From Bacteroidia bacterium (lineage in GTDB: Bacteria > Bacteroidota > Bacteroidia > B-17B0 > Aurantibacillaceae), in NCBI GenBank assembly GCA_016787445.1, contig JAEUTQ010000012.1, forward strand, positions 1 to 64,000: 64,000 nt of DNA. Reading direction: 5' to 3'. Positions 41,333-61,767 of this stretch are shown here, piece by piece. Positions within the stretch are counted from its first letter, which is position 1. Every line of letters starts with the position of its first letter. Below the pieces are notes generated by a model. It did no database searches, was not told the DNA's origin, and was given only the letters and a program-made list of their open reading frames with translations. Position numbers and translations under genes: made by a program.

Positions 41333-41818
41333 GTCACTTTTTGGTTCGCCAAAAAGTAACCAAAAAACTCTTGATGCCGAAAGGCGATTTTGCGCAAAAG
41401 GCAGGCGCAAACCGCGGTTAAAATTGCCGTCGGCTTAGGCCTCGGAGAAGGCAATTTTCCCGCTATCGCTGCCCGGCATCAACCCTCCGAATATCATTTT
41501 ATTCCATTTTAATAGTGCGTTCCCAATATTCAACATTACTTCATTCGGAGAGATCATCGAAGACGATACAGCCGTAATCCGGCCTCATTTTATTCGGTTT
41601 TTTATGCGCAACAAATTGCGTTAAGCCAAATGGGAAGCTCCGCAGGTGGACCAAGGAGATCACCCATTTGGTAGCTTGCCAGCGTTAAGAAAATGTGTAG
41701 TGCACATTTTTAGCGCCCGGCAATGGCTGTTGCGCATAAAAAATTACGACCGTAGGCAGTAAAGAATAAAATGAAGCCTTGACTTCTTTGTTACTTTCTG
41801 CGTCAAGGCAGAAAGTAA
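41333..41818. repeat. Palindrome-packed structured element, possible mobile element or large RNA
   Basis: This gene-free 626-base gap is richer in G and C than its surroundings, and it is built of inverted repeats. The left-end hairpin is 41336-41344/41349-41357 with a TTCG loop. The nested arms are 41371-41379/41474-41482 enclosing 41420-41428/41450-41458. Next are 41485-41492/41543-41550, then the larger fold 41581-41595/41764-41778 (14 of 15 matching) around the perfect 16-bp arms 41598-41613/41728-41743, which contain 41626-41634/41663-41671 and 41690-41697/41703-41710. The right-end hairpin is 41791-41801/41808-41818. The 5' part of both end hairpins is similar (ACTTTTTGG vs TTACTTTCTGC). 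Both ends having hairpins recalls IS200/IS605-type derived elements, but no transposase, repeats of the target site or second copy is seen in the window. The remaining 41819-41939 shows nothing notable. Confidence 0.65.
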
Positions 41819-41939
41819 ATGAATGATTTATGATGGTAGCAAAAAAGAAATAACATAACCTTATCAAAATCCCATTGTGAAAAAGTTAAAATCTCATTTA
41901 TCTTATCAGTAAGTCTTTTGGCTAATATTATAGCTTAAT

Positions 41940-57717: not shown

Positions 57718-60700
57718 ATGAAGAATCTTATTAAATTTTCGGCCATTGCATTTGCTATGTTAACTGTTAACTTGGTAAATGCTCAAATAAAAAATGAACC
57801 GCTTTGGGGTACGCCATGTAAAGAATGTTTAGAGCCTGTAGGGAATTCTCAAAAGGGTTCTCCTGCGTCAGTTCAAAACGGAAACGCAACGATTGCTACA
57901 AGTTATACAACTACAGCATGCGGATTAAATTTTACGACAGCGAGTGTTCGATTGCATGCCCGTTCGTTTGGTGCAGTTACACCTGCAACAGGTCTTGCTC
58001 AACCAGCCACAATGGCTATTTCAGGGATGCCAGCCTGTTTCCAAGTTTTAAAAGCTTTTTTATATATAGGTGGTTCCGGTAACGGTAGCGCTTTTAATGT
58101 GAATTTTACTAATCCGGCAGCAACTGCAAGTACAGTTCCTGCTACTATGATAGGAAGTGACGTAGATAAATGTTGGAGTTTCCCAGGAACTTATAATTAT
58201 CGTTGCGATGTTACAGCATTGATTTCAGGGAATGGTAATTATGTTATTAGTGGAGTTCCTGTAAATGCAACAGCTAAAACTATGGATATGGATGGCGCAA
58301 CTTTATTTATTATTTATTCTGATCCAAATCAAACCTTTACCGGAAGTATTATGATCGGTGATGGTTGTATGGTAATGAAAGGCGGAACTAAAACAGCAAA
58401 CCTTACAGGTTTTAATGTTTGTGGACCTACATCTTTGACAACAAATTTTATGGCGGTTACTGATTTGCAAAAAATCGCAGCTACTCCTGTTTACCTTAAC
58501 TCAGCAACTGCGAATTTCACACAGCCTGTGGCTAGTCAGCAAGTGTATGACTACATTCAACAACCTGGTGCTCCAGCCGTAGCAGGACAAACATCCGCAA
58601 CTTACGGTGTTCAAAATTCAAGTGACTGTTGGAATTTAGTTTTCGCAGGTATGTATTGGAGAACTGCTTGTAACGTTTGTACAATTTCTAACCTTACTGT
58701 TTCGGCTGTTACTTCTTCTTCTTGTTCGGCCGGTTCTGCAACTGCTAATGTATCCGGTGGTACAGCTCCATATTCTTACACTTGGAGTCCTGCAGGTGGA
58801 AACGCACAAAGTATTACCAATATGCCTTCAGGTACATATACTGTTAATGTGAAGGATGCTACAGGTTGTAAAACAGGAACAGCTACAGTGTTGGTAAATG
58901 CAGCAGCTGGACCTACAATTACAGCTAACGCAGGCACTATTTGCGCAGGTAGTTCAGTGAACTTAACTGCTAACGGTGCTTCTACCTATACGTGGAGCCC
59001 TGGTACCGGATTGAATACAACTAACGGTCCGGCTGTAACGGCAAATCCTGCTGCTACTACAGTTTATTCTATCAGTGGAACGAATGCTTTAGGTTGTGTT
59101 GCCACCATTACAACACAGGTAACCGTAAATCCAATGCCTGTACCGGTTATTAATAGTAATAGCCCCGTTTGTTTAAATGCACCATTGAATTTAACTTCTG
59201 GTGGAGGAACAACTTATGCATGGAGCGGACCAAACGCTTTCACTTCAACATTACAAAATCCTACAGTTGCAGCCGCTACAACAGCTGATGCCGGAGTGTA
59301 TACAGTGACTGTAACTTCATTAGGATGTTCATCAACAGCTACAACTAACGTTGCGGTATTAACGCCTTCAACAACGGCTACTAATACCGGAGCGTATTGT
59401 GCCGGTGCAACTATTCAATTAAATGGTGGCGCAGCAACATCTTATAGCTGGACGGGCCCGGGTGGATTTACATCTAACTTACAAAACCCAACTATTGCTG
59501 CTTCAACAACTGCGATGAGTGGAACTTATAATTTATTAGTTTCAATTGGTTCATGTACTGCAGCAGCTTCAACTAACGTTGTTGTTAATGCGTTGCCGGT
59601 TCCAAACGCAATTAGTAATAGTCCGGTTTGTGCGAACGATCAAATTACATTCACAGGTTCAGGTGGAACAACGTATACATGGACTGGCCCTGCTTATAAC
59701 TCTAATCAACAAAATCCGGTAATAGCTTCTTCAACTGCTGCAAATGCCGGTACATATACATTAACGGTAACCGATGCTAATAGCTGTGTAAACTCAACAA
59801 CAGTAAATGTTGTTGTAAATCCGCTTCCTTTTATAACGGTTAACAGCCCTGTAACTTGTTTGAATACTTCATTTACTTTATCTGCAACTGGTGGCTCAAC
59901 ATATGCATGGAGTGGTCCGGGTGGATTTACTTCTAACCAGCAAAATGCGGTTCTTACCAATGCAGCGGCATCTATGTCTGGTGTTTATACTGTTACCGTA
60001 ACTACTGCGAATAACTGTGTGTCAACCGCCACAACTAACGCGCAAGTATTACCATTGCCTAATCCTCAAATCAACAGCAACTCACCTGTTTGTGTGGGTA
60101 ACGCGTTAATTTTAACAGGAAGTGGTGGTGCAACATTTGCTTGGAGCGGCCCGAATAGTTTTGTAAGTGCTCAACAAAATCCAACAATAGCAAACGTAAC
60201 ATTAGCTGAAGCCGGCGTTTATACTTTATTAGTTTCTTCCGGAACTTGTACTGCAAGTACTACTGCTACAATTGTTATAAATCCATTACCAACTCCGCAA
60301 ATCGTAGTAAATACTCCGGTTTGTGTTGGACAAACTTTAAACTTTAGTGGTAGTGGTGGTGTAACCTATAGCTGGAACGGTCCGGGCTTTATTAATAACA
60401 CGCAAAACCCTTCAATTCCTGCCGCCACAATGTTTAATAATGGAACATTTGTGTTAACAGTTACCGATGCAAATAATTGTACTAATTCAACCACTCAGAA
60501 TGTGGTGGTAAATCCTTTACCAAATGTAAATGCAACCGGCGCAACGGTGTGTGAAAACGCTAATGCAACTTTAAGCGCAGGCGGTGGAGTTACTTATTCA
60601 TGGAGTGGCCCCAATGGATTTACTTCAAATAGTCAAAATCCAATGCTGTCAAATGCACAATTGAATGTTTCAGGTCAATACACAGTTTTAGTGACGGATG

Positions 60701-61767
60701 CAAATACTTGTACGAATACAGCGGTAGCAACAATTATTGTAAATCCTGCTCCTGTGGCAACAATTAATAACAATAGCCCGATTTGCGTAAACAGCATGTT
60801 AAGCTTAAGTGGTTCGGGTGGAGTTAGCTATAGCTGGACAGGACCGAATGGATTTATTTCTACTTCTCAAAATCCAAACTTCAATGCAAGTTCAACAGCT
60901 TACTCAGGAAATTATGTGCTCACAATTACAGATGCTAATGGATGTACTGCTTCTGCAACAACTGCAGCAACTATTAATCCGATTCCGAGTGTAGCAATTA
61001 ATGCGGTTCCTAATAGAGGATGTGCGCCTCTCTGTACTTCATTTAACTTAAATACAAGTCCTGGTATTCAAACCTACAATTGGAATTTAGGAAATGGAAT
61101 TACCGGAAATAGTGCAACACAACAAACATGTTATGGAACAACAGGAGTTTATACTGTGAACGTTGTTGTATCAGATGCCATTGGTTGTACCAATAGCGCT
61201 TCTTACACCGTTGAAGTATTCCCTCAACCGGTTGCTGACTTTAACCATGCGCCAATTAAACCAATTATTAATGTGGATCCTGAAGTAACATTTACAGATG
61301 CTTCACATGGAGATTCGATTGTTAAATGGCAATGGTATTTCATGAATAATGCACAGTATACATCGACACAACAAAATCCAACATTCATGTATTCTGATCC
61401 GGGTACTTATGCGGTGGCCTTGGTTGTTACAAGTGATAAAGGTTGTATCGATACATTAGTGAGAATCGTTGAGGTAGGTGAAGACTTCGGAATTTACGTT
61501 CCAAATGCATTTACACCTAATGCCGATGGATTAAATGATGTGTTCCAGCCAAAAGGATTTGGCATTGTAAAATATCAATTACAAATCTTTGATCGTTGGG
61601 GTGAGAGAGTGTTTGAGACCAAGGAGTTTGAAAAGGGATGGGATGGAAAATTTGTTGGTCGCGGTGATAATATTTGCGAGCAAGGAACTTATACCTGGTT
61701 GATAAATGCAGTGAGTGTATTTGGAAAAGCTCACGAATTAAAAGGTCACGTAACCCTCATAAAATAA
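57718..61767 (+). CDS. Giant secreted Ig-like repeat protein with type B T9SS domain
   Basis: A 1349-residue exported protein from the ATG at 57718 (a start 7 codons earlier is possible, but this one begins the signal peptide MKNLIKFSAIAF...). The N-terminal 330 residues form a beta-rich head. A SprB-like repeat (TVNVKDATGC) lies at about 58700-58910. Then about nine Ig-like repeats of 72-78 residues follow (about 58915-60990), each with the pattern NSPVC, (W)SGPNGF, QNP, GxYTxxVTDxNxC and NPLP. Two PKD-like repeats come before the CHU_C/gliding-associated C-terminal domain (IYVPNAFTPNADGLNDVF, FDRWGERVFE). It is a likely surface adhesin or matrix protein exported by T9SS. Confidence 0.9.
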   Translation: MKNLIKFSAIAFAMLTVNLVNAQIKNEPLWGTPCKECLEPVGNSQKGSPASVQNGNATIATSYTTTACGLNFTTASVRLHARSFGAVTPATGLAQPATMAISGMPACFQVLKAFLYIGGSGNGSAFNVNFTNPAATASTVPATMIGSDVDKCWSFPGTYNYRCDVTALISGNGNYVISGVPVNATAKTMDMDGATLFIIYSDPNQTFTGSIMIGDGCMVMKGGTKTANLTGFNVCGPTSLTTNFMAVTDLQKIAATPVYLNSATANFTQPVASQQVYDYIQQPGAPAVAGQTSATYGVQNSSDCWNLVFAGMYWRTACNVCTISNLTVSAVTSSSCSAGSATANVSGGTAPYSYTWSPAGGNAQSITNMPSGTYTVNVKDATGCKTGTATVLVNAAAGPTITANAGTICAGSSVNLTANGASTYTWSPGTGLNTTNGPAVTANPAATTVYSISGTNALGCVATITTQVTVNPMPVPVINSNSPVCLNAPLNLTSGGGTTYAWSGPNAFTSTLQNPTVAAATTADAGVYTVTVTSLGCSSTATTNVAVLTPSTTATNTGAYCAGATIQLNGGAATSYSWTGPGGFTSNLQNPTIAASTTAMSGTYNLLVSIGSCTAAASTNVVVNALPVPNAISNSPVCANDQITFTGSGGTTYTWTGPAYNSNQQNPVIASSTAANAGTYTLTVTDANSCVNSTTVNVVVNPLPFITVNSPVTCLNTSFTLSATGGSTYAWSGPGGFTSNQQNAVLTNAAASMSGVYTVTVTTANNCVSTATTNAQVLPLPNPQINSNSPVCVGNALILTGSGGATFAWSGPNSFVSAQQNPTIANVTLAEAGVYTLLVSSGTCTASTTATIVINPLPTPQIVVNTPVCVGQTLNFSGSGGVTYSWNGPGFINNTQNPSIPAATMFNNGTFVLTVTDANNCTNSTTQNVVVNPLPNVNATGATVCENANATLSAGGGVTYSWSGPNGFTSNSQNPMLSNAQLNVSGQYTVLVTDANTCTNTAVATIIVNPAPVATINNNSPICVNSMLSLSGSGGVSYSWTGPNGFISTSQNPNFNASSTAYSGNYVLTITDANGCTASATTAATINPIPSVAINAVPNRGCAPLCTSFNLNTSPGIQTYNWNLGNGITGNSATQQTCYGTTGVYTVNVVVSDAIGCTNSASYTVEVFPQPVADFNHAPIKPIINVDPEVTFTDASHGDSIVKWQWYFMNNAQYTSTQQNPTFMYSDPGTYAVALVVTSDKGCIDTLVRIVEVGEDFGIYVPNAFTPNADGLNDVFQPKGFGIVKYQLQIFDRWGERVFETKEFEKGWDGKFVGRGDNICEQGTYTWLINAVSVFGKAHELKGHVTLIK
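58915..60990 (+). repeat. Tandem coding repeats of about 220-235 bp
   Basis: The Ig-like repeats of the giant protein form a tandem array at the DNA level. Recurring blocks include tggagtggcccgaat-like segments and caaaatccaac-like segments. Copies differ at many positions, so they are old or diversifying. Such arrays may misassemble with short reads. Confidence 0.8.

What the first reader, a model, noticed from the sequence alone, without database searches (positions are those of the whole stretch)
41333..41818. A 485-bp palindrome-built element between merR and the O-acylation genes
Seen directly: at least nine inverted repeats fill this gap, including perfect 16-bp arms at 41598-41613 and 41728-41743, surrounded by 15-bp arms (41581-41595, 41764-41778; one mismatch). 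The element is bounded by a hairpin at each end (41336-41357 with a TTCG loop and 41791-41818), and both begin with a similar ACTTT(T/C)TG core. It is more GC-rich than its surroundings and has no credible ORF. Established knowledge: elements with subterminal hairpins and no protein are moved by IS200/IS605-type TnpA or RAYT enzymes, and large multi-stem RNAs can also look like this. Inference: a non-autonomous mobile element or a large structured RNA. I recall similar hairpin ends in other Bacteroidota genomes, but I cannot verify this.
Basis: partly seen in the sequence, partly recalled or inferred. Interest (0 to 1): 0.7.

Follow-up and report, generated by a model that had tools for sequence, protein, structure and literature searches.

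The report
Modular hairpin-ended mobile repeat, Bacteroidota-wide
The 485-bp gap holds one copy of a protein-less, strongly folded, mobile DNA repeat whose halves are mixed and matched between copies; its folded end module recurs across the phylum Bacteroidota, and I found no description of it in the paper library I could search.

Summary
The segment folds far better than chance (z -10.1), is more GC-rich than its surroundings and has no long ORF. It is a repeat, not decayed sequence: about 15 full or partial copies in its own genome (many at contig ends), a 93% copy in a sister species, and presence/absence at orthologous sites.

Copies are two-part mosaics: a left module (A or A') and a right module (B, B' or B'') joined by a linker. 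All four A/A' x B/B' combinations occur in one genome. At the merR site the sister species has a different, inverted copy.

Loop and strand match in 82/82. The stem changes sequence between genera but still pairs. In one relative, ~385-bp units have inverted ends and 5-bp target duplications, so they transpose.

Mismatches in stems are not biased to G-U on either strand, which favours DNA over RNA, weakly. No transposase was linked; resident RAYT genes carry other repeats.

Best reading: a non-autonomous, hairpin-ended, modular mobile DNA element, a new family resembling MITEs and REP/BIME composites. The mobilising enzyme is unknown.

The parts
41333..41818 (.). whole element, mosaic of type A-linker-B
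41336..41357 (+). left terminal hairpin (A type), ACTTTTTGG-TTCG-CCAAAAAGT
   Evidence: 8 copies in the own genome, none in the reversed-pattern control
41371..41482 (+). left folded domain A closed by TTGATGCCG / CGGCATCAA; with the hairpin, 97.5% identical among 10 copies
41485..41566 (.). linker joining left and right modules; 80% identical among the same copies; A/A' and B/B' reassort across it
41581..41778 (-). right folded domain B: long-range stem P2 (arms 41581-41595 and 41764-41778) enclosing stem P3 (arms 41598-41613 and 41728-41743)
   Evidence: P2 shared across genera
41676..41723 (-). 48-bp nested mini-palindrome TTGCCAGCGTTAAG..TAGCGCCCGGCAA; absent from the short B form, free-standing between genes in relative G001
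41778..41783 (-). strand complementary to the terminal loop (on the minus strand GTCAAG pairs with loop CTTGAC)
   Evidence: sequence; Y/R linkage 82/82 in relatives
41791..41818 (-). right terminal hairpin P1; its loop 41802-41807 is complementary to 41778-41783
41832..41850 (+). 3' half of a B'-type terminal hairpin (GATGGTAGCAAAAAAGAAA), 13 nt outside the right end: remnant of an earlier occupant
   Evidence: the same arrangement at 12-16 nt outside 7 right ends

Best explanation
The segment is a non-autonomous mobile DNA element with no gene of its own. It belongs to a Bacteroidota-wide family built on a folded end module: a terminal hairpin P1, a short strand complementary to the P1 loop, and a long-range stem P2 that begins right after it. 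SHOWN: the repeat is multi-copy; it is present or absent at orthologous sites; halves reassort through a shared linker; related Filimonas units have inverted ends and 5-bp target duplications. INFERRED: the folded ends are recognised, as duplex, cruciform or single strand, by an enzyme supplied in trans; sites are reused, the earlier occupant leaving half of its terminal hairpin; small palindromes insert into the hairpins, and recombination between copies at the linker makes new combinations. The enzyme is not identified, and no role for the host is shown.
For: Copies: 14 strong places in the own genome, many at contig ends; 93% copy in G007. Polymorphism: C16 copy of G000 absent from G007 between flanks 93% or more identical; C62 and C52 copies also absent from G007, the C52 site being filled by another repeat family; merR gap without element in G002 and G006, filled by an inverted A'-B copy in G007. 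Mosaicism: A-B (C64, C58/C5, C44, C19), A-B' (C63, C52, C75), A'-B (C38, C43), A'-B' (C16), A'-B'' (C1). Family: at least 111 stretches, nearly all Bacteroidota; loop and strand complementary in 82/82 though the pattern let Y and R vary independently; P2 of 9 bp or more in 18 of 35 genomes against 6% when 5' and 3' sides are swapped between genomes and 2.4% after shuffling. Transposition: Filimonas units ~385 bp with 19-bp inverted ends, 5-bp duplications exact in 9 of 21 against 0.42 expected. Constraint: within Filimonas, P1/P2/P3 stems 97-100% identical, right spacer 66%, terminal repeats 79-86%. Half-hairpins 12-16 nt outside right ends in 7 loci.
Against: No target duplication was seen for the window's own subfamily, and the outer inverted repeat of Filimonas is not recognisable around it; mobility there rests on copies, empty sites and homology of one module. 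No transposase was found with these ends. Copies at the same site in sister species could reflect gene conversion of an old resident rather than new insertion. Covariation in long palindromes can come from template-switch correction of quasi-palindromes, so pairing does not by itself prove selection.
Confidence: 0.78

Rival explanations
1. A large structured non-coding RNA, or a regulatory RNA at the ends of transcripts, copied to many places.
For: Very stable fold; folded core nearly invariant while spacers drift; pseudoknot-capable end module conserved across genera.
Against: No Rfam match. Single mismatches inside stems show no G-U preference on either strand: 5 G-T, 6 A-C, 17 other; P2 9 G-T, 7 A-C; the counts are small. 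Whole element inverted at the orthologous site. Left and right halves swap freely. No fixed orientation to the neighbouring genes.
Confidence: 0.12
2. REP/BIME-like palindromes moved by a RAYT or IS200/IS605 TnpA enzyme, such as subclass 2.6 of Bacteroidetes, whose genes are reported to be flanked by atypical structures (PMC6006769).
For: Hairpin ends, intergenic location, modular palindromes; Y1_Tnp genes in all 8 genomes of the genus.
Against: The four Y1_Tnp genes of G000 and two of G007 that were inspected carry other palindromes (TCCCGTAGGGACGACC, GGGCTTTAGCCC, CGGATTATAAATCCG) and none of the A or B hairpins. Target duplications in Filimonas do not fit IS200/IS605 chemistry. Element length is 385-500 bp.
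Confidence: 0.2
3. Intergenic terminator or insulator kept at fixed sites, with sequence shuffled by recombination.
For: The small terminator-like hairpin after merR in G002 and G006 is replaced by the element in G000 and G007; several loci stay occupied in both sister species; divergent gaps are slightly avoided, 6 of 60 against 30 of 132.
Against: Only 14 of 60 gaps are convergent; clear presence/absence differences; long size and duplications in Filimonas are not explained.
Confidence: 0.1

Closest known systems
MITEs (e.g. MITECca01 of Cardinium, derived from an IS982 element; PMC9769881)
   Same: Non-autonomous, protein-less, multi-copy, intergenic; the Filimonas family has inverted ends and target duplications.
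   Different: No parental IS found; the internal folded core is better conserved than the terminal repeats and is shared across genera while the outer repeats differ from genome to genome; halves are modular.
REP / BIME repeats with RAYT enzymes (PMC6006769, PMC3733652)
   Same: Palindromic, intergenic, composite and nested arrangements.
   Different: 385-500 bp instead of 20-40 bp units; no RAYT gene carries these repeats here; target duplications in one family.
IS200/IS605 end structures
   Same: Hairpins at both ends and a short internal strand able to pair near the hairpin.
   Different: Here the strand pairs with the hairpin loop, the two ends are mirror images, and relatives make target duplications.

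Membership tests
MITE | no coding capacity, multiple copies per genome | tested here: met
MITE | terminal inverted repeats | tested here: met
   19-bp outer repeats in Filimonas; in the window family only the end hairpins are similar (I4, 82%)
MITE | target-site duplication | tested here: inconclusive
   met in Filimonas, 9 of 21 exact against 0.42 expected; none recognised for the window's own subfamily
MITE | parental IS with the same ends in the genome | tested here: not met
   no longer end pair in Filimonas at 3 mismatches or fewer; no recurrent neighbouring gene in 80 loci
IS200/IS605 or RAYT-mobilised element | same hairpins flank a TnpA/RAYT gene | tested here: not met
   (four genes of G000, two of G007); RAYT genes of other relatives were not inspected
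IS200/IS605 or RAYT-mobilised element | no target duplication | tested here: not met
   duplications in the Filimonas relative
Rfam structured RNA | match to a curated covariance model | tested here: not met
Structured RNA (any) | G-U tolerated on the transcribed strand | tested here: not met
   small numbers
Structured RNA (any) | transcription | not testable with these tools
   no expression data held

The most novel reading that the evidence does not exclude
A phylum-wide class of bacterial mobile DNA that moves through folded ends: a hairpin whose loop pairs with an internal strand is the recognition structure, an enzyme cuts at the inner side of the hairpin loop, earlier occupants leave half-hairpin footprints that mark reusable sites, and exchangeable left and right folded halves are shuffled between copies.
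Probability: 0.25. Interest if true: 0.85.

Novelty: new variant of a known kind. Interest (0 to 1): 0.62.

Why it matters
Bacteroidota genomes carry a widespread repeat that breaks assemblies, can give spurious short ORFs and rearranges intergenic regions, yet I found no description of it. Its conserved folded end module, exchangeable halves and half-hairpin footprints make the mode of movement and the identity of the enzyme directly testable in cultured genera named here (Foetidibacter, Mucilaginibacter, Myroides, Dyadobacter).

Tried and rejected
Rfam at gathering and relaxed thresholds: nothing meaningful. Plasmids, phages and viral contigs: no match. Resident RAYT/Y1 transposases as movers: flanks carry other palindromes. 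Autonomous Filimonas copy with the same ends: none. Recurrent neighbouring gene in 80 loci: none beyond ordinary host genes. Mirror-image right end in all genera: found in only 4 of 82, so most families have a different right end. A-C excess in P1 (11 to 0) was discarded because my search pattern fixed one arm. Copies with the outer repeats but no core in G148: none. Literature: no paper found by topic or by sequence strings, in an open-access library only. The same copy-number search in the Foetidibacter genome was not possible, as that genome is not held.

Full report
OBSERVATION. The segment folds much more stably than shuffled sequence (z -10.1), is more GC-rich than its surroundings and has no long ORF.

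IT IS A REPEAT. Blasting the segment against its own genome gives 14 strong places plus fragments. Several end exactly at contig ends, as expected of a repeat that breaks assembly. The sister species G007 (6 contigs) has a 93% copy at another locus, orthologous to the copy split between contigs C58 and C5 of G000.

IT IS A MOSAIC. Reading the copies shows a left module (A as here, or an unrelated A' of the same architecture), an ~82-bp linker, and a right module (B as here, in a long or short form, or B', or B''). In one genome A-B, A-B', A'-B, A'-B' and A'-B'' all occur. The A module, hairpin included, is 97.5% identical between copies while the linker is 80%. Small palindromes are inserted inside the modules: a 48-bp mini-unit in B (window 41676-41723), a palindrome CCCGATAGCTATCGGG and a ~29-bp hairpin in A.

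IT COMES AND GOES. Between merR and the SGNH gene, relatives G002 and G006 have only a small terminator-like hairpin, G003 has another folded insert, and G007 has an inverted copy of different composition (A'-B) between nearly identical flanks. The G000 copy on contig C16 is absent from G007, whose flanks there are continuous; the copies on C52 and C62 are also absent from G007, and the C52 site holds a different repeat family. Beyond seven right ends, 12-16 nt outside, lies the loop and 3' arm of a terminal hairpin of the other type, including window 41832-41850. I read these as footprints of earlier occupants; that is an inference.

THE END MODULE IS PHYLUM-WIDE. On the minus strand the right end reads hairpin (loop CTTGAC), linker, GTCAAG, then a stem GGCTTCATTTTATTC / GAATAAAATGAGGCC. 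One MAG labelled Williamsia and one labelled Margulisiibacteriota are probably mis-binned (not tested). Loop and downstream strand are complementary in 82 of 82 although Y and R could vary independently. Right after that strand starts a long-range stem, P2, whose sequence differs between genera; 18 of 35 genomes have a perfect stem of 9 bp or more, against 6% when the two sides are swapped between genomes and 2.4% after shuffling. The left A hairpin has the same linker sequence but lacks the loop pairing.

TRANSPOSITION IN A RELATIVE. In a Filimonas MAG the module sits inside ~385-bp units bounded by ATCATTGTTGTCCGACTAA and its reverse complement (73 half-sites, no longer pairs). Of 21 units, 9 have an exact 5-bp direct repeat at the junctions and 12 have 4 or more of 5 matching; permutation expects 0.42 exact, with a maximum of 5 in 20,000 trials. 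These are target-site duplications. Within these copies the P1, P2 and P3 stems are 97-100% identical, the P3 loop 83%, the right spacer 66% and the terminal repeats 79-86%. The folded core is thus better conserved than the transposition ends, which is unusual for a MITE. Foetidibacter and Mucilaginibacter-like copies have other outer inverted repeats around the same core.

DNA OR RNA. If one strand acted as RNA, G-U pairs should exceed A-C mismatches on that strand. In the stems I count 5 G-T, 6 A-C and 17 other single mismatches, and for P2 9 G-T and 7 A-C. This favours DNA-level symmetry, on small numbers. Arm-to-arm correction of palindromes during replication could also produce such compensated changes, so pairing alone is not proof of selection (established knowledge on quasi-palindrome mutagenesis).

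WHO MOVES IT. Y1 transposase (RAYT-like) genes exist in all 8 genomes of the genus, but the six inspected, in G000 and G007, carry other palindromes. No gene recurs next to the elements in 80 loci. The enzyme is unknown.

LITERATURE. [quoted passage not shown] I could not compare sequences, and the Y1 genes inspected here do not carry this module. PMC9769881 describes an IS982-derived MITE in Cardinium, of a different build. Topic and sequence-string searches of the open-access library found no description of this family; this does not exclude one elsewhere.

VERDICT. A real, mobile, non-autonomous, folded and modular DNA repeat; a new family of a known general kind, with unusual features: loop-pairing end module, exchangeable halves, half-hairpin footprints, and a core conserved beyond the terminal repeats.

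Noticed in passing
G000:C27, C3, C38, C29; G007:C1, C5 (L059, L064, L070, L074, L060, L066): Y1_Tnp genes, several of the Y..Q..HH type that PMC6006769 says generally lacks flanking structures, are here surrounded by arrays of their own palindromes (GTCCCGTAGGGACGACC, GGGCTTTAGCCC).
   Followed up: partly
L279, L280, L282, L283, L095 (G007): A second intergenic repeat family (ACCCCTCTGTC..GACATCTCCCCTTAGCAGGGGAGAAATC / GGACAGCTTCTCCCCCTGCGAAGGGGGAG) occupies some orthologous sites in place of the window-type element.
   Followed up: no
L004, L009, L094; L145 and L183 (Foetidibacter): Small palindromes (CCCGATAGCTATCGGG; a ~29-bp hairpin; a ~23-nt palindrome in the P1 loop) are inserted inside the hairpins of the larger element, in Russian-doll fashion.
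   Followed up: partly
G148:C45:45876-46041: The outer inverted-repeat arm of the element is present in triplicate with 72-bp spacing beside one copy.
   Followed up: no
L103 (G001:C6): The 48-bp mini-palindrome of the B module stands alone between two genes.
   Followed up: partly
59210-60872: Five ~49-nt direct repeats inside a 1356-aa predicted secreted protein with repeated domains.
   Followed up: no
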